Source: Moorella humiferrea
Lineage (GTDB): Bacteria > Bacillota > DSM-521 > Neomoorellales > Neomoorellaceae
Reading direction: 5' to 3'
Assembly: GCF_039233145.1 (NCBI RefSeq)
Contig: NZ_CP136419.1
Coordinates: forward strand, 718,001-782,000
DNA: 64,000 nucleotides
Shown: in pieces, positions 1-17,612 of the stretch
Numbering within the stretch: the first letter of the stretch is position 1
Layout of the letters: each line of letters begins with the position of its first letter
Translations under genes and position numbers: made by a program
The notes under the pieces: generated by a model
Told to the model about the DNA's origin: nothing
Seen by the model: only the letters and a program-made list of their open reading frames with translations
Database searches by the model: none

Positions 1-2
1 TG

Positions 3-139
3 GACCTGGCGGCCATGGCTGGTTACCTGGCGGGGGAAGTGGTCCTGGTTACCGGCGCCGGCGGTTCCATCGGGTGCTGCGCCTGGTCCTGCCGGGCTTT
101 CGGGTAGAGAAAGGGCAGGAAATGGTGCAGGTGGGGTAG
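3..139 (+). pseudogene. capD-like polysaccharide biosynthesis gene, chimeric remnant
   Basis: Frame 3 encodes a stretch ending in the nucleotide-binding motif VTGAGGSIG, typical of the Rossmann start of CapD/UDP-N-acetylglucosamine 4,6-dehydratase-type proteins. At about 74 it runs directly, in another frame, into a C-terminal tail (LRLVLPGFRVEKGQEMVQVG, then TAG at 137-139). Nearly the whole catalytic part is missing, so this is a deletion fusion of the front and back of one gene. Related tails occur at 1495-1797 and 5717-5821, which supports reading it as a CapD C-terminus. The gene may begin before the window. The family assignment rests on short motifs. Confidence 0.55.
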
Positions 140-271
140 GGTGTTAATTGTCAGGCTCCCTTCCTGCAGCCTGGCAGGTTATGAAGTTTATAAACTCAAA
201 ATAGCAGGATTTCTACGGTTAAGCTAGAACCTATTTCCATTAGGTTATCTAACCTATATCGGGGGCATAAT

Positions 272-786
272 ATGGTAAGGGTTTTTATAGGTTTTCATGG
301 TACTAGTAAAGCAAGTGCTGATATGATATTATTGGATAAAAGATTTTTACCTTCAAATAGAGAAGATGAATGGTTGGGGAAGGGTATATACTTTTTTGAG
401 GATGATCCTGACCAGGCTATTGATTGGTGTGTACGCGCCAGGAAATATAAAGAATGGGCTATCTTAAAAACTGTTATTGAAGCCCAGGAGGTTCTTGATT
501 TAACACGAAAGCGGGAATGGGATATGTTTTTGTCGATAATAAAACAACTACAGGGCAAAATGAAGCAGACAAAGTATAAAGGAAAACGCCTTTTAAATGG
601 TGTGGCTATAAATTTTATCTGCCAACAATTTCCTTATGAGTGGTTAGAGCTGTTTTTCTTGTGCCCGGCCGGAGTTATCCGTACGACATTACTAATATTC
701 CCCCGGTACAAATTCAAATATGCGTAAAAGAAGAGCGGTGTATAAAATCTATTGAACAATGGAGGTGCAGTAACGGTGGATTTTAA
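272..786 (+). pseudogene. ADP-ribosyltransferase-like toxin (CmdT/DUF3990-like), frameshifted
   Basis: The N-terminus has the pattern of small bacterial ADP-ribosyltransferase-fold toxins: FHGTS near residue 8 (NAD-binding His), then GKGIYFF with the conserved Tyr, then QAIDW. The ATG at 272 follows a GGGGG ribosome site. The uninterrupted frame stops at 727, but its last ~30 residues look non-native. Adding one base near 640 (GAG^TGG) gives a family-like end (VFLVPGRSYPYDI, then VQIQICVK) that runs to TAA at 784-786 and overlaps the next start at 776, as expected for a coupled operon. Neighbours are a small antitoxin-like gene and a SecB-like gene, the order of CmdTAC, an anti-phage toxin-antitoxin-chaperone system whose toxin ADP-ribosylates mRNA. 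The fold is inferred from motifs; the target is unknown. It is inactive if the lesion is real. Confidence 0.6.
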
Positions 787-1009
787 AGAAGTAGTTGAGC
801 AGATAAACCAATATCTTGCCCAGGTAACTATTGAACAATTTGAAAGGGATTTACAGAGGGCTGGGATTGAGCAATGTCCCGATATTGGGGAGGAAGCAGA
901 TAGTGAATGGCAACCAGAAAGGTTAATCGTTGAATATAGTATTCTTGAGGAACCATATAGCGACTTAACAAATGGTTATATTGCTATTGCAAATGGTGAG
1001 GCGGCATGA
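776..1009 (+). CDS. small antitoxin-like protein of a toxin-antitoxin-chaperone locus
   Basis: The GTG at 776 is chosen because GGAGGTG (761-767) sits nine bases upstream; an earlier in-frame ATG at 752 lacks this. The product is about 77 residues, acidic, with a predicted helical start (KEVVEQINQYLAQ) and a C-terminal segment with hydrophobic patches (YIAIANGEAA). No DNA-binding domain is recognisable. Its start lies inside the restored toxin frame, and its stop overlaps the next ATG (ATGA at 1006-1009), so all three genes look translationally coupled. In TAC systems the antitoxin carries a C-terminal chaperone-addiction segment recognised by the SecB-like partner; that role is inferred from position, not seen directly. 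Confidence 0.6.
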   Translation: MDFKEVVEQINQYLAQVTIEQFERDLQRAGIEQCPDIGEEADSEWQPERLIVEYSILEEPYSDLTNGYIAIANGEAA

Positions 1010-1436
1010 TAGACAAGTCTATAGAGAGCAATTTGATTTTTCGGGGGTATAAAGTTTTACATTTATCTTATAAGTTGAATCAGAACTTTAAATCACAGAA
1101 GAATAAGTCTATACCGCTTGACTTCAAAGTACGGACTGAATCAACTGTTGATGAAACAAATAATGAGATTACCGTTGATTTATTTTGTAATATATTTGAA
1201 GAAAGCCCCGAAAAAGATAATCCATTTCACTTAGAAGTTAATTTACGGGGCTGGTTTAAAACTAACTCTGCTGTTGAAAAGAATGAGTTGTATCGTTATG
1301 CAGAAATTAACGCTCCGGCTATTCTTTTTCCTTCTTGAGAACAGTTGTTTCGAGTATTACTATGGCTGCAAATGTTCCACCCGTAATACTTCCATTAGTT
1401 AACATCAATCGTTTAAATGAGCTTCAAAAACAATAA
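1006..1436 (+). pseudogene. SecB-like chaperone of a TAC system, frameshifted near its end
   Basis: The first 110 residues resemble SecB-like chaperones, with a beta-strand-rich core, the strand FHLEVNLRGWF, and the conserved NAPAILFP before the last helices. Translation then stops at 1336-1338. Shifting frame by one base around 1327-1333 (CTTTTTCCTTC, one T short) continues into LRTVVSSITMAANVPPVILP and on to TAA at 1434-1436, a typical SecB C-terminus (PxLRxxxxxxT, PPVxLPxxN). Gram-positive bacteria normally lack housekeeping SecB, so a solitary SecB-like gene beside a toxin and small gene points to a toxin-antitoxin-chaperone function, protecting the antitoxin. A sequencing error in the T run would explain the break equally well. 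Confidence 0.65.
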
Positions 1437-1494
1437 TAATCGCGCAATGGTCACTGAGTTAAAGCATGCTATCGCCGGATGGAGAGGCGTAAAG

Positions 1495-1797
1495 CGCAAC
1501 GTCCTGGGCAGCCGCGGCAGCGTCGTGCCCCTTTTTCAGCGCCAGATTGCCGCCGGGGGGCCGGTGACAGTGACCCACCCGGAGATGACCCGCTACTTTA
1601 TGACAATCCCCGAGGCAGTGCAGCTGGTCATCCAGGCCGGCGCCCTTGTCCTAATGCCACTTCCCGCGAGAGCATCTTTATTGCCCGGCCGGAGGAATTC
1701 GACGCCGCCAAGCTGGAGCACTTCCTGGCGCTGGTCTCCCAGCCCGGCTGGCGGGCCGACATGGCCGGGGTGGAAGAACTGCTGCGCCTGGTCTGTC
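1495..1797 (+). pseudogene. capD-like gene, internal and C-terminal fragments
   Basis: The first part encodes [16 protein letters not shown] and then [16 protein letters not shown], a hallmark of CapD/FlaA1-type nucleoside-sugar 4,6-dehydratases. After about 1650 the frame changes and the sequence continues as [19 protein letters not shown] and VEELLRLV, which matches a C-terminal tail like that at 74-139. There is no start and the catalytic core is missing. The upstream sequence (1437-1494) does not resemble the family. The piece is fused at its 3' end to a YdcF-like fragment. Confidence 0.65.
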
Positions 1798-2084
1798 TTT
1801 TAATTATTACCGCAGGTCTCTTTTTATTTTTGTGGACAACGAAAAGTTTCTGGTTACCGTTTGCTGCCCGCTGGCTGATGGTAGGAGACAAAGATTTACA
1901 TCCTGACGATGTGATTATTGTCCTCTCGGGTGAACAGGGCGAGCTGGTGGCAACGGGGGTAAAGCTCTACCAGGAAGGCCTGGCTCTAAGGCTTCTGATG
2001 ACTAGCGGTCCAGTAAAATGGAAGAGGAATGAGCGTCCTGGCGGCGAGCAGATACGGCGGGATCTGGCTGCCTGGCAAGGGTAG
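1797..2084 (+). pseudogene. YdcF/ElyC-like (DUF218) protein, N-terminal fragment
   Basis: The frame encodes a membrane-spanning start ([13 protein letters not shown]), then LMVGDKDLHPDDVIIVLSG and YQEGLALRLLMTSGP. This is the usual beginning of DUF218 envelope proteins: a transmembrane helix, then the Asp-Ala/Val-Ile-Val-Leu-Ser-Gly core. The conserved second half is absent; the frame ends at 2084 in unrelated sequence. It is joined at its front to the capD-like tail without an own start codon. It is most likely a deletion remnant from a former envelope-polysaccharide locus. Confidence 0.5.
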
Positions 2085-2858: not shown

Positions 2859-3218
2859 CTATTTGCCACAAAGATGATTATTAATCACAGCTAAAACATC
2901 AGCTAAAGTGTTTTCGTAAGAACAAAGTACTTCTTTTTTGTGCTTTGTATGTTTATGATGAGGAAACGTGGCTATTTCCCTGTGGTGTTCCTTGTTATCC
3001 CAGCCCATAATAACAGTATCTCCATCCAGCCAGTAGTAATTATAACGTTCCAGTTTATCGTCCTGCCAGCGATCATAAATTTCTAAAAAAGAGCCATCAA
3101 TAAAATAAATCCTACCGGAGATAATGGTACGATTCCGGCGGGTTAGTGTAGTAAAATCTTCGATGGTTGCAATAATAGTTTTATGTTTGTCCAGTGCACC
3201 CGTATAATATTGCTTCAT
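2859..3218 (-). CDS. TumE-family (DUF6516) toxin
   Basis: The 119-residue protein carries the family pattern: a strand-rich N-terminus, GSFLEIYDRW, a Tyr-rich YNYYWLDGD, then WDNKEHHREIATFPHHKH and a C-terminal helix (ENTLADVLAVINNHL). The His cluster (HHREI...FPHHKH) is the conserved signature of the TumE/DUF6516 group, annotated as toxins of two-gene TA systems. The start ATG shares one base with the stop of the upstream gene (TAATG), so the pair is translationally coupled. The gene order, putative antitoxin first, fits. The biochemical activity of the family is not evident from sequence. Confidence 0.7.
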   Translation of the reverse strand: MKQYYTGALDKHKTIIATIEDFTTLTRRNRTIISGRIYFIDGSFLEIYDRWQDDKLERYNYYWLDGDTVIMGWDNKEHHREIATFPHHKHTKHKKEVLCSYENTLADVLAVINNHLCGK

Positions 3219-3535
3219 TATTGCTGGCCCTCTAATGCTGCTAAAAGCGTTTTAGCTTCCCTGATAATATCGAGCCACATTTCCCATTCGGTATCGTCTC
3301 TGTGGGTTTCGAAGTCTGTCATAGTAGGAACTACTTTTTTTTGGAATTCTTCATAGTTCATGTTATATTTTGCTTCTAGCCTTTTGATTTGTTCCTCGGC
3401 CTCTTTGATTTGATGTTTTAACTGGATGGTTTTCCTTTTAGCTGTAAGGTCAATGGCGTCCACGATTAAAGCTTCGCGTTCCCGAGGAGGCAGTTTTACC
3501 AACCACTCGGGTGCTCGTATTTCTATCCGTTCCAC
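3218..3535 (-). CDS. antitoxin partner of the TumE-like toxin
   Basis: GTG at 3535 is preferred because GAGGTGG lies seven bases upstream; a TTG at 3550 overlaps that site. The product (about 105 residues) begins VERIEIRAPEWLVKLPPRER and continues into a long charged coiled-coil-like helix (residues ~35-70: KHQIKEAEEQIKRLEAKY), then YNMNYEEFQKKV and an acidic Trp-rich end. Genes of this shape commonly precede TumE-family toxins; the helical part likely contacts the toxin. It overlaps the toxin start by one base. No classical HTH or RHH domain is visible, so autoregulation is unclear. Confidence 0.6.
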   Translation of the reverse strand: MERIEIRAPEWLVKLPPREREALIVDAIDLTAKRKTIQLKHQIKEAEEQIKRLEAKYNMNYEEFQKKVVPTMTDFETHRDDTEWEMWLDIIREAKTLLAALEGQQ

Positions 3536-3612
3536 TGGTAACCACCTCAATTATTCAGGTATATTCAGTTTAAAGTAGCTTTATCATTAAGTCAAGTAAG
3601 GTCACGATTTAG

Positions 3613-6583: not shown

Positions 6584-6856
6584 ATGTCCAACCCCTTAGT
6601 ACGCTTAACTAGTAAAGGGCAGATGACTATTCCCCAAAGTATCAGAGAAACTTTGGGCCTGAAGGCAGGCGATTATTTGACCATCCTGGTTGATGGAGAT
6701 GAGATACGTTTGAAAAAAGTCCAGCCAGTGAAGCCCTTGAGTAAAGAAGACCCTATATGGAAATTAGTTGGTGCCGGCAACAGTGGCCTTAAAGATGTCG
6801 CTGCCAAACATGATCATTACCTGGCTGAAGGTGAAGTAGAAAGATGGAAAAAATAA
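6584..6856 (+). CDS. AbrB/MazE/SpoVT-type antitoxin
   Basis: The first ~45 residues form a swapped-hairpin AbrB domain (LVRLTSKGQMTIPQSIRETL, GLKAGDYLTILVDGDEIRLK). The C-terminal tail (PIWKLVGAGNSGLKDVAAKH) is a typical toxin-binding extension of VapB proteins. The ATG lies behind a GTAAGGAGAAGG ribosome site and a promoter ends at 6540. Its last codons overlap the toxin gene by 13 bases. Expected function: neutralise the PIN toxin and repress the operon. At 90 residues it has normal family length and no defects. Confidence 0.9.
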   Translation: MSNPLVRLTSKGQMTIPQSIRETLGLKAGDYLTILVDGDEIRLKKVQPVKPLSKEDPIWKLVGAGNSGLKDVAAKHDHYLAEGEVERWKK

Positions 6857-7242
6857 TGGTAGATACCAGCGCTATTTACGCTCTTATTGACCGCTCGGAC
6901 GATTGGCATGAGAAGGCTAAGAATCTCTTTAAGAAATTAAGCGAACAGGATGTTGATTTAATATTAACAAACTTTATTTTGGCTGAAACCCATGCTTTAA
7001 TTTTGAGCCGTATAGGTCATGAACTGGCCCGTGAATGGGTAAAAAATTTGGTTTGGAAAATTGAACGTGTTAAAGAAGAAGATGAGAAGCGAGCCAGGGA
7101 AATCATAATTGCATACAAAGATAAGTCTTTTTCTTATACCGATGCTACTACTTTTGCTGTTATGGAACGACTAAAGCTGAATGTAGCTCTGGCCTTTGAT
7201 AATCATTTTACCCAGTTTGGCTGGCAGTGTCTTGACGTTTGA
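6844..7242 (+). CDS. vapC: VapC-type PIN-domain ribonuclease toxin
   Basis: The 132-residue protein has all PIN acidic motifs: MVDTSAIYALID (first Asp), TNFILAETHALI (Glu), SYTDATTFAVME (third Asp) and AFDNHFTQFGW (fourth Asp). VapC enzymes are Mg-dependent RNases that cleave tRNA or rRNA. The gene overlaps its AbrB-type antitoxin, so the pair forms one operon. A partial, decayed copy of this gene lies at 10422-10556. Target RNA cannot be told from sequence. Confidence 0.9.
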   Translation: MEKIMVDTSAIYALIDRSDDWHEKAKNLFKKLSEQDVDLILTNFILAETHALILSRIGHELAREWVKNLVWKIERVKEEDEKRAREIIIAYKDKSFSYTDATTFAVMERLKLNVALAFDNHFTQFGWQCLDV

Positions 7243-7481: not shown

Positions 7482-7641
7482 TACCTTGTTATATTTATTG
7501 CCTTGAGTTGGATATAACCGGCACCTTTCATGGAGCAAACAAGCTGTAAAAACGTAGGATCAGTTTGTAGTAGCTATCTTTGTACGACCGCTTTTAGCCA
7601 GTGTGGCACCCGTTTTTTGATATTCCCGAGGGGGGGTACTG
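7482..7641. other. short gap without recognised feature
   Basis: No family-like frame is visible. A GGGGGGG run (7631-7637) just before 7642 could serve as ribosome site for the next gene. Confidence 0.4.
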
Positions 7642-8191
7642 ATGGGCATCTATCTGGGGCTGAGGGTTTTGCCAGATGCAATCGGGGCGGTGGAATGGGA
7701 GCGTTTTTATGACGCAGCCAAACAAGTGATCCAGGCCTTTAAACCGCAGCCGGTGCGCCTCACCGAGGAAGAAAAGTTTGGCTTTACGCGGCTTGTTCTT
7801 ACGCGTAGCCCGGAGGGCCAGGATCACAAAGGCCGTTTTCTGGCCGTAGTCGGTGATGCCCAGACGTGGGAGTGTGCTGAGCAATTTCATATCTACCGCG
7901 GATTTACAACGTGGATTAACGGTATCAGACAGGTGGTTAACTATACGTTATCATTATCGAGCAAGCAAGTTAAATCAAGTCATGGAGGAATACAGGCAGT
8001 TTCTAGCCCAGCCGCGTAGCGTAAAACAGTTAAATGCCGAGCTGGAAGCAAAAGTCCAGTTGTTGACAGATTTCAAAACAAATCTGAGCGAAACTCAGGT
8101 GGAACTGGAAGGCATGGTAGGAGTTTTTACCGCCTTTTTCTTGGAAGCGTGGAAGGCACCGGTCTACAGGAAAGGGGAAATTGTTGAATAA
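7642..8191 (+). pseudogene. unrecognised gene, probably frameshifted
   Basis: From an ATG at 7642 behind a G-rich ribosome site, the frame encodes YLGLRVLPDAIGAVEWERFY, FKPQPVRLTEEEKFGFTRLV and FLAVVGDAQTWECAEQFHIY. Around 7895 good coding character passes to another frame: STADLQRGLTVSDRWLTIRY, MEEYRQFLAQPRSVKQLNAE and a coiled-coil-like VQLLTDFKTNLSETQVELEG ending EIVE at 8191. The two halves have similar composition and may be one former protein of ~180 residues. I do not recognise the family. It could alternatively be two overlapping fragments. Confidence 0.35.
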
Positions 8192-13153: not shown

Positions 13154-14729
13154 CACTAGCGTTGCATAAAGAAAAAATAAACTTGTCAAGGGAAATAACG
13201 CCCAAAAAACAGCCAAATTCCTGAAATAACCTAGCCTTGCAAGAAAAAACTCCTTATACTAGAGATTGAGGGTAGTCCTTGCCCCAACTTCTAACATAAG
13301 GAGGCCCAAATGCAAGGTAAGGATACCACATTATCCACATTTCATCAACTGTTTGCTCCAGTTTCTAACGACTATTTTTGGCAGTTAACCGCCGGTATGG
13401 GGGTCGATAAGTACGCTAAGAAGCTAAATTCCCTTCAACTCATTAAACTAATAGCCTTCGCTCAGCTGGAACAACTTAATGGCTTGCGGGATATCAGCAA
13501 TAGCTTCAATGACCCGCAATTTAGCCTGGCTATCAATTTAGAGAGTATCAGTTTCTCCCAGATAGCGCGCCGTTTAAGGGATTTATCGCCGCAATTCATC
13601 CGGCTATTATTCAGCCATCTCACCACCCGGATAGGCCGGGAAATCGGCTTTGAAAACTTAAGAAATACCGCAGGACGTATTTACCTCATCGATTCCACTA
13701 TCATTAGTCTCTGTTTTACCCAGTACCTCTGGGCCGAGTTTCGTAGGACTAAAAGCGGGATAAAACTCCACCTGCGCTTAAAGTTCTGTGAAGAAGAGGT
13801 TCTACCTGATAAAGCAATTGTCACCCCGGCCCGGAAGGCAGATAAAACCCAGATGGATACCCTCGTAGTAGAGGAAGAAGAAGCCTTAAACGTCTTTGAC
13901 CGCGGCTATGTCGATTACAAGAAGTTTGACAGATACTGTGAAGAAGGCGTCCGCTTTGCCAGCCGCTTAAAGGGTAATGCTCTGGTAGAAATAATCGCCG
14001 AGTTGCCGGTAAACCCTGACAGCAAGGTTAAAAAGGAACAGCTTGTTTACCTTGGCAAAGATGGAGTTACCAAAATGAAGCACCCTTTACGGCTGATAAC
14101 AACCGAAGATACCCAAGGGCAACCGGTAATTATAGTCACCAATGATTTCGAGTTACCGGCGGAAGAATTAAGCGAGATTTATCGTAAGCGCTGGCAGATA
14201 GAACTCTTCTTCAAATGGATGAAACAACACCTGCAGGTGAAACATTTTTATGGTAAAAGCGAACAGGCTGTAGAAAACCAGCTCTTCATAGCGCTAATAA
14301 CCTACTGCCTGATGGTTATGCTGCAATTAAAGGCCGGCTATCAAGGACCATTGCTCACTATTAAACGTTTAATACGCACCTGTCTATATGAGCCCTTTAC
14401 CTTCTTCGTCCAAAGCCTGCACCGTAAACCCAAACGAAGGTCTTATGGGCGGCACAAGATAGACTATGAAGGCATCTATCAGGATTTAGTAAAGCAAGTT
14501 TTAGCTGGCGAAGCTGATTATTTAAACGACGTAACTTATGACCCCTTAGTTCTTTAAGCAACTTTATATGGCAATATGTGGATAAGGACTACCCCTGATA
14601 ACCTAAGTCCTTTGGCCAGTGAAGGAAGAAAATGCATGGTTGTATACACCATTAATGTTATTATATAACATATTCTGCCTTCCATATATTGCCTTGCACT
14701 GTGCTAAAAATTTTTATGCAACGCTAGTG
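13154..14729 (+). mobile_element. IS4-family insertion sequence, copy 1
   Basis: 1576 bases bounded by inverted ends CACTAGCGTTGCATAAA and its complement, flanked by the 9-base duplication ATTTGCTTT. It contains one transposase gene and no passenger. A second copy with the same length, ends and protein, in the opposite orientation, is at 16037-17612. Intact frames and identical proteins indicate recent activity. Confidence 0.93.
13310..14557 (+). CDS. IS4-family DDE transposase
   Basis: The 415-residue protein has an N-terminal DUF4372-like region (FHQLFAPVSNDYFWQLTAGM), then the DDE catalytic triad: YLIDSTIISL (first Asp), LNVFDRGYVDYKKF (second Asp, DRG motif) and YRKRWQIELFFKWMKQHLQV (the YREK-type motif with catalytic Glu). 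A helical tail follows with basic SLHRKPKRRSYG. The ATG is preceded by AAGGAGG. It catalyses cut-and-paste or related transposition of the surrounding element. It is identical to the copy at 16209-17456. Confidence 0.95.
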   Translation: MQGKDTTLSTFHQLFAPVSNDYFWQLTAGMGVDKYAKKLNSLQLIKLIAFAQLEQLNGLRDISNSFNDPQFSLAINLESISFSQIARRLRDLSPQFIRLLFSHLTTRIGREIGFENLRNTAGRIYLIDSTIISLCFTQYLWAEFRRTKSGIKLHLRLKFCEEEVLPDKAIVTPARKADKTQMDTLVVEEEEALNVFDRGYVDYKKFDRYCEEGVRFASRLKGNALVEIIAELPVNPDSKVKKEQLVYLGKDGVTKMKHPLRLITTEDTQGQPVIIVTNDFELPAEELSEIYRKRWQIELFFKWMKQHLQVKHFYGKSEQAVENQLFIALITYCLMVMLQLKAGYQGPLLTIKRLIRTCLYEPFTFFVQSLHRKPKRRSYGRHKIDYEGIYQDLVKQVLAGEADYLNDVTYDPLVL

Positions 14730-16036: not shown

Positions 16037-17612
16037 CACTAGCGTTGCATAAAAATTTTTAGCACAGTGCAAGGCAATATATGGAAGGCAGAATATGTTA
16101 TATAATAACATTAATGGTGTATACAACCATGCATTTTCTTCCTTCACTGGCCAAAGGACTTAGGTTATCAGGGGTAGTCCTTATCCACATATTGCCATAT
16201 AAAGTTGCTTAAAGAACTAAGGGGTCATAAGTTACGTCGTTTAAATAATCAGCTTCGCCAGCTAAAACTTGCTTTACTAAATCCTGATAGATGCCTTCAT
16301 AGTCTATCTTGTGCCGCCCATAAGACCTTCGTTTGGGTTTACGGTGCAGGCTTTGGACGAAGAAGGTAAAGGGCTCATATAGACAGGTGCGGATTAAACG
16401 TTTAATAGTGAGCAATGGTCCTTGATAGCCGGCCTTTAATTGCAGCATAACCATCAGGCAGTAGGTTATTAGCGCTATGAAGAGCTGGTTTTCTACAGCC
16501 TGTTCGCTTTTACCATAAAAATGTTTCACCTGCAGGTGTTGTTTCATCCATTTGAAGAAGAGTTCTATCTGCCAGCGCTTACGATAAATCTCGCTTAATT
16601 CTTCCGCCGGTAACTCGAAATCATTGGTGACTATAATTACCGGTTGCCCTTGGGTATCTTCGGTTGTTATCAGCCGTAAAGGGTGCTTCATTTTGGTAAC
16701 TCCATCTTTGCCAAGGTAAACAAGCTGTTCCTTTTTAACCTTGCTGTCAGGGTTTACCGGCAACTCGGCGATTATTTCTACCAGAGCATTACCCTTTAAG
16801 CGGCTGGCAAAGCGGACGCCTTCTTCACAGTATCTGTCAAACTTCTTGTAATCGACATAGCCGCGGTCAAAGACGTTTAAGGCTTCTTCTTCCTCTACTA
16901 CGAGGGTATCCATCTGGGTTTTATCTGCCTTCCGGGCCGGGGTGACAATTGCTTTATCAGGTAGAACCTCTTCTTCACAGAACTTTAAGCGCAGGTGGAG
17001 TTTTATCCCGCTTTTAGTCCTACGAAACTCGGCCCAGAGGTACTGGGTAAAACAGAGACTAATGATAGTGGAATCGATGAGGTAAATACGTCCTGCGGTA
17101 TTTCTTAAGTTTTCAAAGCCGATTTCCCGGCCTATCCGGGTGGTGAGATGGCTGAATAATAGCCGGATGAATTGCGGCGATAAATCCCTTAAACGGCGCG
17201 CTATCTGGGAGAAACTGATACTCTCTAAATTGATAGCCAGGCTAAATTGCGGGTCATTGAAGCTATTGCTGATATCCCGCAAGCCATTAAGTTGTTCCAG
17301 CTGAGCGAAGGCTATTAGTTTAATGAGTTGAAGGGAATTTAGCTTCTTAGCGTACTTATCGACCCCCATACCGGCGGTTAACTGCCAAAAATAGTCGTTA
17401 GAAACTGGAGCAAACAGTTGATGAAATGTGGATAATGTGGTATCCTTACCTTGCATTTGGGCCTCCTTATGTTAGAGGTTGGGGCAAGGACTACCCTCAA
17501 TCTCTAGTATAAGGAGTTTTTTCTTGCAAGGCTAGGTTATTTCAGGAATTTGGCTGTTTTTTGGGCGTTATTTCCCTTGACAAGTTTATTTTTTCTTTAT
17601 GCAACGCTAGTG
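16037..17612 (-). mobile_element. IS4-family insertion sequence, copy 2
   Basis: 1576 bases with the same ends as the 13154 element but inverted. It is flanked by its own 9-base duplication CTGTGGTAT (16028-16036 and 17613-17621). Because each copy has its own repeats, the two are independent insertions, not the arms of a composite transposon. Confidence 0.93.
16209..17456 (-). CDS. IS4-family DDE transposase, copy 2
   Basis: The translated protein is identical to the 13310-14557 transposase, with all three catalytic motifs (LIDSTI, VFDRGY, YRKRWQIELFFKWMKQ). It reads against the direction of the host operon, so in addition to breaking permease 1 it could give antisense transcription into the binding-protein gene. 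Confidence 0.95.
   Translation of the reverse strand: MQGKDTTLSTFHQLFAPVSNDYFWQLTAGMGVDKYAKKLNSLQLIKLIAFAQLEQLNGLRDISNSFNDPQFSLAINLESISFSQIARRLRDLSPQFIRLLFSHLTTRIGREIGFENLRNTAGRIYLIDSTIISLCFTQYLWAEFRRTKSGIKLHLRLKFCEEEVLPDKAIVTPARKADKTQMDTLVVEEEEALNVFDRGYVDYKKFDRYCEEGVRFASRLKGNALVEIIAELPVNPDSKVKKEQLVYLGKDGVTKMKHPLRLITTEDTQGQPVIIVTNDFELPAEELSEIYRKRWQIELFFKWMKQHLQVKHFYGKSEQAVENQLFIALITYCLMVMLQLKAGYQGPLLTIKRLIRTCLYEPFTFFVQSLHRKPKRRSYGRHKIDYEGIYQDLVKQVLAGEADYLNDVTYDPLVL

What the first reader, a model, noticed from the sequence alone, without database searches (positions are those of the whole stretch)
272..1436. CmdTAC-like toxin-antitoxin-chaperone locus with two single-base breaks
Seen: three coupled genes, an ART-fold-like toxin (FHGTS, GKGIYFF), a 77-residue small protein, and a SecB-like protein, linked by overlapping starts and stops. 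The toxin end and chaperone end each need one base restored (near 640 and 1327-1333), after which both give family-like C-termini and a toxin stop overlapping the antitoxin. Known: CmdTAC in Escherichia coli is an anti-phage system of an mRNA ADP-ribosyltransferase, antitoxin and SecB-like chaperone. Inference: this is a diverged relative in a Gram-positive thermophile lineage. The two lesions could be decay, phase variation or sequencing error.
Basis: partly seen in the sequence, partly recalled or inferred. Interest (0 to 1): 0.8.

Follow-up and report, generated by a model that had tools for sequence, protein, structure and literature searches.

The report
Broken phage-defence toxin operon in Moorella
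This is a three-gene bacterial defence module (a toxin, its antidote and a chaperone) of an already described kind that has recently spread between species of a heat-loving bacterium, and in this genome both the toxin and the chaperone genes are broken.

Summary
At 272-1436 lie a toxin, a 77-residue antitoxin and a SecB-like chaperone, coupled by overlapping ends; toxin and chaperone each carry one frame break. Five congeneric copies align and none shares either break; both genes are open in four of the five, including Moorella mulderi. Intact copies match the CmdTAC (PD-T4-9) models for toxin (E 1e-6) and chaperone (E 5e-36). The intact toxin is confidently predicted as an ADP-ribosyltransferase-like fold, with invariant H9 and Y40 and a probable third residue Q149. 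The antitoxin has two helices, a disordered tail and an -AA end, as described for CmdA. All 14 toxin-bearing genomes among 398 of the phylum carry the chaperone beside it. The cassette is 96-99% identical in four of five congeners, while genes shared with two of them are about 84% identical, so it moved recently. Only 2 of 167 other conserved genes checked show a frame change, so decay is likelier than sequencing error. It is a decayed new member of a known system already reported from Gram-positives. The functional steps are inferred from E. coli.

The parts
272..727 (+). CmdT-like ADP-ribosyltransferase toxin gene, frame as it stands (151 aa); the last ~28 residues are off-frame
   Evidence: PD-T4-9_A 1.1e-6; phrog_14664 1.7e-18
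640..786 (+). rest of the toxin reading frame after the break; holds the last three predicted strands and the codon of the probable third triad residue (Q149, 715-717)
   Evidence: (own genome matched in two pieces)
776..1009 (+). CmdA-like antitoxin, 77 aa, intact, ends in -GEAA
1006..1338 (+). CmdC/SecB-like chaperone gene, frame as it stands (110 aa)
   Evidence: SecB 4.9e-4, below its cut-off; PD-T4-9_C 1.5e-18
1326..1436 (+). rest of the chaperone reading frame after the break (C-terminal ~34 residues)
   Evidence: PD-T4-9_C 1.4e-12; second piece in own genome
75..1435 (+). stretch shared at 97.2% with G009, taken as the smallest exchanged unit
   Evidence: G000 718075-719435 against G009
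1..140 (+). remnant of the 3' part of a capD-like polysaccharide biosynthesis gene upstream of the cassette (by likeness, read by eye, to L005, where that gene is nearly whole; no Pfam hit of its own)
1479..1803 (+). second, frame-disrupted remnant of the same kind of gene downstream of the cassette
   Evidence: open counterpart in L002 2793-3374: Polysacc_synt_2 7e-55; the window ORF 1479-2081 itself has no Pfam hit

Best explanation
This is a CmdTAC (PD-T4-9) toxin-antitoxin-chaperone operon that recently moved between Moorella species and then decayed in this genome. In intact copies, by analogy with E. coli (inferred, not shown here): the SecB-like chaperone holds the disordered tail of the antitoxin and shields its -AA end from ClpXP; the antitoxin folds and silences the toxin; when a phage protein draws the chaperone away, the antitoxin is degraded and the toxin ADP-ribosylates mRNA, so translation and phage growth stop. 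In this genome the toxin frame ends before the last three strands of its fold, so the probable third triad residue is not made. The chaperone lacks the C-terminal segment that holds three of its seven invariant residues. The system is therefore most likely dead, with only the antitoxin intact.
For: Family: PD-T4-9_A and PD-T4-9_C hits, SecB Pfam 1.8e-12 above its cut-off for an intact copy. Linkage: 14 of 14 toxin-bearing genomes, of 398 searched, have PD-T4-9_C next to the toxin, while only 26 of 398 have PD-T4-9_C at all. All nine of these genomes outside the genus have an ORF of 71-121 aa between the two. Fold: model of the intact toxin with mean pLDDT 91, pTM 0.86; nearly all of the 50 rows shown by VIA-align are PARPs, ADP-ribosyltransferase toxins or RES-type NAD-using toxins, best Z 10.2 over 134 residues, rmsd 3.6. 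Y40 and Q149 are invariant in 10 of 10 toxins from nine genera, H9 in all but one frame-broken copy; in a wider set H9 and Y40 are in 30 of 30 and Q149 in 23 of 30. Antitoxin (M. mulderi copy): helices 3-16 and 19-28, residues 33-77 under pLDDT 50, as CmdA is described (PMC11618068 section 6). ClpX and ClpP genes are present. Purifying selection between intact copies L002 and L005: dN/dS 0.21, 0.24 and 0.14 for T, A and C. Recent transfer: third-position difference 0.7-2.3% for the three genes against a median of 29% over 98 ORFs, G000 against G005. Real decay: 2 frame changes in 167 other conserved genes (54,635 aa), which gives about 0.012 expected in T plus C where 2 are seen (arithmetic mine).
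Against: The toxin match to the CmdT models is modest (26 bits at best) and Foldseek alone gave no PDB match at E <= 0.001 (best 7.5e-3). No E. coli CmdTAC sequence was compared directly. The third triad residue is not settled: 7 of 30 related toxins, two of them chaperone-linked (L104, L125), lack Q at that place. Among CmdT-like toxins of viral contigs the chaperone is the minority case, 23 of 67 (several contigs end too early). The antitoxin of G009 ends -EAT, not -AA. No activity, phage effect or expression was measured, and a local sequence error cannot be excluded without reads.
Confidence: 0.82

Rival explanations
1. Sequencing or assembly error: the strain carries an intact, working CmdTAC and both breaks are single-base errors.
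For: Both are one-base gaps, the commonest error of some long-read assemblies (recalled); the rest of the aligned stretch differs from G005 by only 8 substitutions in 1203 columns.
Against: Only 2 of 167 other conserved genes show a frame change, so two in one operon is more than a hundredfold excess. Other genomes show lesions of the same genes at other places: G004 (toxin and chaperone), G089 and G211 (toxin).
Confidence: 0.12
2. Phase variation: the genes are switched on and off by slippage at short repeats.
For: Two single-base differences, with intact versions in near-identical copies.
Against: No run at either site exceeds five bases, shorter than known slipping tracts (recalled); lesions in other genomes lie elsewhere in the genes.
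Confidence: 0.02
3. A selfish addiction module rather than phage defence: the operon keeps itself in mobile or variable DNA, and its loss of function is neutral.
For: It sits in a variable region with other toxin-antitoxin pairs, has moved between species, and lesions recur.
Against: The same architecture in E. coli defends against phages (PMC11618068, PMC9519451). The two roles are not exclusive.
Confidence: 0.2

Closest known systems
CmdTAC (PD-T4-9) of E. coli ECOR22
   Same: Gene order toxin, small antitoxin, SecB-like chaperone; H and Y of the HY-[E,D,Q] triad with a probable Q; antitoxin of two helices plus a disordered tail with a ClpXP-type end.
   Different: Diverged toxin sequence (26 bits to the model); in this window toxin and chaperone are frame-broken; trigger and target untested. 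Compared through family models and the published description only.
MqsRAC and HigBAC toxin-antitoxin-chaperone systems
   Same: A SecB-like chaperone guarding an antitoxin with a C-terminal chaperone-addiction tail.
   Different: Their toxins are RNases (recalled; PMC11618068 section 12 speaks of endoribonucleases in such systems); the toxin here has an ADP-ribosyltransferase-like fold and the antitoxin has no Pfam hit.
NatRT, MbcTA, ParST and RES-type NAD-using toxin-antitoxin pairs
   Same: Toxin fold: VIA-align Z 10.2 to 8.5 over 122-138 residues.
   Different: Two-gene systems without a SecB-like chaperone (recalled); 6-12% sequence identity.

Membership tests
CmdTAC / PD-T4-9 | CmdT homologue as first gene | tested here: met
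   PADLOC PD-T4-9_A 1.1e-6 (window frame) and 1e-6 (intact copy); modest scores
CmdTAC / PD-T4-9 | second small ORF downstream of the toxin (sequence variable) | tested here: met
   776-1009; also in all nine toxin-bearing genomes outside the genus. This rule for calling the system is in PMC9519451, passage seen
CmdTAC / PD-T4-9 | SecB-like chaperone as third gene | tested here: met
   PD-T4-9_C 4.8e-36 and SecB 1.8e-12 for an intact copy; both pieces hit in the window
CmdTAC / PD-T4-9 | H and Y of the catalytic triad | tested here: met
   H9 and Y40 are in the window frame, in 30 of 30 toxins; H9 is missing from 1 of 10, a frame-broken copy
CmdTAC / PD-T4-9 | third triad residue (E, D or Q) | tested here: inconclusive
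   Q149 is invariant in 10 of 10 but present in 23 of 30; its role is inferred from conservation and its place in a late strand. In the window the codon is in the DNA but not in the toxin's open frame
CmdTAC / PD-T4-9 | toxin and chaperone frames whole, as needed for a working system | tested here: not met
   both frames broken in the window; hence a member by descent, not a working system, unless reads show otherwise
CmdTAC / PD-T4-9 | antitoxin with two N-terminal helices and a long disordered tail | tested here: met
   M. mulderi copy: helices 3-16 and 19-28; residues 33-77 with pLDDT under 50; alignment of only 9 rows, mean pLDDT 54
CmdTAC / PD-T4-9 | antitoxin C-terminus of ClpXP type (LAA in E. 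coli) | tested here: met
   -EAA in the window and 4 of 5 congeners, -EAT in G009; AA or VA in 7 of 9 genomes outside the genus and in 22 of 23 chaperone-linked viral-contig loci, against 0 of 22 toxin and 0 of 23 chaperone ends
CmdTAC / PD-T4-9 | NAD-dependent ADP-ribosylation of mRNA; chaperone-controlled antitoxin; phage defence | not testable with these tools
   needs experiments
MqsRAC / HigBAC | RNase toxin of MqsR or HigB family | tested here: not met
   no such Pfam family listed for the toxin at E <= 10; ADP-ribosyltransferase-like fold instead
DUF3990 | match to the DUF3990 Pfam model | tested here: inconclusive
   not among hits at E <= 10; HMMER filters drop weak matches

The most novel reading that the evidence does not exclude
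The wiring of CmdTAC imposes an order of decay: the chaperone can be lost safely only after the toxin has died, so wild copies should pass through toxin-dead states and end with the antitoxin alone. This window (toxin and chaperone broken, antitoxin whole) and G004 (the same end state by different lesions) would be two independent ends of that path, G089 and G211 (toxin broken, chaperone whole) the middle. One genome, G377, speaks against it.
Probability: 0.25. Interest if true: 0.5.

Novelty: new member of a known kind. Interest (0 to 1): 0.32.

Why it matters
It adds a thermophilic genus to the range of a recently described mRNA-targeting defence system, suggests that the three genes travel between species on a unit that can be as short as about 1.4 kb, and points to intact thermophile copies that could be good material for biochemistry. 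The repeated lesions offer a natural test of the idea that chaperone loss is tolerated only after toxin loss.

Tried and rejected
Programmed frameshifting was considered and rejected: four congeners carry whole frames, and I saw no canonical slippery heptamer at either break (by eye). Chance similarity was rejected by the two-gene linkage. DUF3990 gave no hit. No PDB sequence matched the toxin at E <= 10; the chaperone matched SecB only weakly by phmmer (best E 0.056). No plasmid record matched the window chaperone piece. The phage collection gave six partial toxin matches, none covering 80% of the query, best E 5e-9. Promoter and terminator scans were at chance level. NCBIfam gave no toxin or antitoxin family.

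Results against my reading. Ordered decay: G377, a genome of 94% completeness and 6% contamination in 510 contigs, has a whole toxin frame but a chaperone that ends early; with 14 genomes and 3 broken chaperones the idea is not tested statistically. Triad: Q149 is missing in 7 of 30 related toxins. Tail: L018 (G089) ends -KK and L022 (G165) -VG among the nine genomes outside the genus, L103 ends -SV, and G009 ends -EAT. The VIA-align rows also include a cyanophage ejectosome protein (rank 4) and an insecticidal protein (rank 5) that I did not look into.

Counts and dropped rows. The 28 conserved genes of the G009-G000 comparison of the window region were not added to the 167, because they overlap the G005 set; the two cassette genes were left out of the 167. 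Of the 23 antitoxin tails, two pairs of loci carry identical antitoxins (L107/L108, L157/L159), so distinct proteins are 21, of which 20 end in AA or VA; the middle ORF was picked automatically as the longest. The toxin end of L126 was not read. The third-position counts used the window's ORFs as they stand, so the part of the toxin after the break was counted in a shifted frame. Of the 67 viral loci 28 gave toxins to the fold alignment, chosen by me.

Papers: PMC11618068: abstract, outline, sections 6, 7, 9, 12, 34, part 1 of 2 of section 41, and passages. PMC9519451 and PMC4257090: passages only. Listings only: eight papers with CmdTAC, seven with toxin-antitoxin-chaperone, SecB-like and Firmicutes, seven with Moorella and toxin-antitoxin. 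No paper holding both CmdTAC and Moorella or both PD-T4-9 and Moorella was found in this library.

Full report
What is there. The window is bases 718001-782000 of a single-contig 2.67 Mb genome. The nearest named relatives at this locus are Moorella mulderi DSM 14980 and Moorella sp. UBA4076. Three genes lie head to tail on the + strand: 272-727 (toxin, broken), 776-1009 (77 aa), and 1006-1338 (SecB-like, broken). A search of 11 genomes of the genus, the window's own included, found the locus in 6. The five other copies align over 877 to 1203 columns; the window has a one-base gap at two places where none of the five has one. Toxin and chaperone are each one open frame in four of these five (for L002, L004 and L005; for G002). 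The fifth, in G004, has lost the toxin's first ~100 codons and has an early stop in the chaperone.

What it is. Intact congeneric proteins match the PADLOC models of the PD-T4-9 (CmdTAC) toxin (1e-6 and 4e-6 for the two models) and chaperone (4.8e-36), and the Pfam SecB model above its cut-off. The window's toxin frame also matches a phage-protein family of unknown function, phrog_14664 (1.7e-18). AlphaFold2 on the M. mulderi toxin with 29 related toxins gives mean pLDDT 91. Foldseek's best PDB rows are the NatRT toxin and PARP catalytic domains, at E 7.5e-3 or worse. In the VIA-align second look the 50 rows shown are mostly PARPs and tankyrases, with MbcT, NatT, ParT, RES-type toxins and diphtheria toxin, at Z 10.2 down to 8.3. 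Among ten toxins from nine genera Y40 and Q149 are invariant, and H9 is missing only in a copy (G211) whose own frame is broken upstream. In a wider set of 30, H9 and Y40 are in 30 and Q149 in 23. I read H9-Y40-Q149 as the HY-[E,D,Q] triad of CmdT (PMC11618068 section 6); the third residue is inferred and less sure than the other two.

The antitoxin. It has no hit in Pfam, PADLOC or NCBIfam and only a chance-level one in PHROGs (0.22). The model of the M. mulderi copy has helices at 3-16 and 19-28 and nothing ordered after residue 32, which is how CmdA is described. It ends in -EAA in the window; CmdA ends in LAA, a ClpXP signal. Among 23 viral-contig loci with toxin and chaperone, the gene between them ends in AA or VA in 22, against 0 of 22 toxins and 0 of 23 chaperones. 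In nine genomes outside the genus it is 7 of 9. One Moorella copy ends -EAT. This genome has clpX and clpP.

Linkage. Of 398 genomes drawn across the phylum, 14 have the toxin at E <= 1e-4 and 26 have the chaperone at E <= 1e-6. All 14 toxin genomes are among the 26, with the chaperone on the same contig and strand within 1 kb. In viral contigs the toxin family is wider: 67 loci, of which 23 have a chaperone on the same strand; some of the others end before a chaperone could be seen, and others have unrelated neighbours.

History. The cassette is 99, 99, 97, 96 and 87% identical in the five congeners. Between this genome and G005 the three genes differ at 0.7-2.3% of third codon positions, while the median of 98 shared ORFs in the surrounding 200 kb is 29% (identity 84%). 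Against G009 it is 0.7-5.5% compared with a median of 25% over 39 ORFs (identity 84%). So the cassette crossed species lines recently. Of the 98 ORFs 21, the cassette's included, are 96% or more identical, many in the same variable region, so it may not have moved alone. The shortest shared stretch, with G009, runs from window 75 to 1435, within a base of the chaperone stop. It lies between remnants of a capD-like polysaccharide gene. Intact copies L002 and L005 show purifying selection (dN/dS 0.14-0.24).

Are the breaks real? In 167 other conserved genes of this genome (54,635 aa, three regions) the same method found 2 frame changes. At that rate about 0.012 are expected in toxin plus chaperone; 2 are seen, Poisson probability about 7e-5 (my arithmetic). 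One of the 2 lies in the same variable region (window 7530-8016). Error at the genome's general rate is thus unlikely; a local error cannot be excluded without reads. Toxin lesions recur: 4 of 14 toxin-bearing genomes have a broken toxin (G000, G004, G089, G211), and the genus of G211 has two members with whole toxins. Two of 67 viral-contig toxins were also matched in two frames (L097, L126). Chaperone lesions are seen in 3 of 14: G000 and G004, with the toxin also broken, and G377, with the toxin whole.

How it works, step by step. Shown here: gene order, fold prediction, conserved residues, antitoxin architecture, presence of ClpXP genes, recent transfer, broken frames. Inferred from the E. 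coli work (abstract and sections read): chaperone protects antitoxin, phage capsid protein diverts the chaperone, ClpXP removes the antitoxin, the toxin ADP-ribosylates mRNA. Whether Moorella phages trigger it, and whether mRNA is the target here, is unknown. In this strain the toxin frame stops short of the last three predicted strands (124-130, 146-152, 158-166) and the chaperone frame short of the segment with R112, P130 and N133, three of the seven residues invariant in ten chaperones, so I expect no activity.

Compared with what is known. CmdTAC homologues in Gram-positive species are already reported (PMC11618068, passage), so this is a new, decayed member of a known kind. What is added is the genus, the evidence of recent exchange between its species, and the recurrent lesions. 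I found no paper that names both CmdTAC and Moorella in the library searched.

Noticed in passing
window 2862-3550 (- strand): TumE-like toxin (PF20126, 3.3e-18) with an overlapping partner gene at 3221-3550; both about 99% identical to G005: a second toxin-antitoxin pair that seems to have moved recently.
   Followed up: partly
window 6584-7242: MazE/AbrB-type antitoxin and PIN-domain toxin pair (VapBC-like); Pfam 1.9e-12 and 8.4e-12.
   Followed up: partly
window 7530-8016: Gene with a frame change relative to its 162-aa counterpart in G005; the only one besides the cassette among the 67 conserved genes of that comparison.
   Followed up: no
window 13310-14557 (+) and 16209-17456 (-): Two 415-aa ORFs, identical over the 110 residues shown, in opposite orientation, transposase-like by eye, about 1.65 kb apart.
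   Followed up: no
L058 14605-15123 (about 3 kb upstream of the window start): 172-aa protein with a match to the C-terminal part of the PADLOC DarG model (3.3e-12); a DarT partner was not looked for.
   Followed up: no
L093-L159 (viral contigs): 44 of 67 CmdT-like toxins in viral contigs have no SecB-like chaperone on the same strand of the fetched stretch; some stand before unrelated genes, so the toxin family may be wider than CmdTAC. 7 of the 30 toxins aligned lack Q149, five of them with V.
   Followed up: partly
L004 2028-2261: Antitoxin of G009 ends -EAT instead of -EAA, although its toxin and chaperone frames are whole.
   Followed up: no
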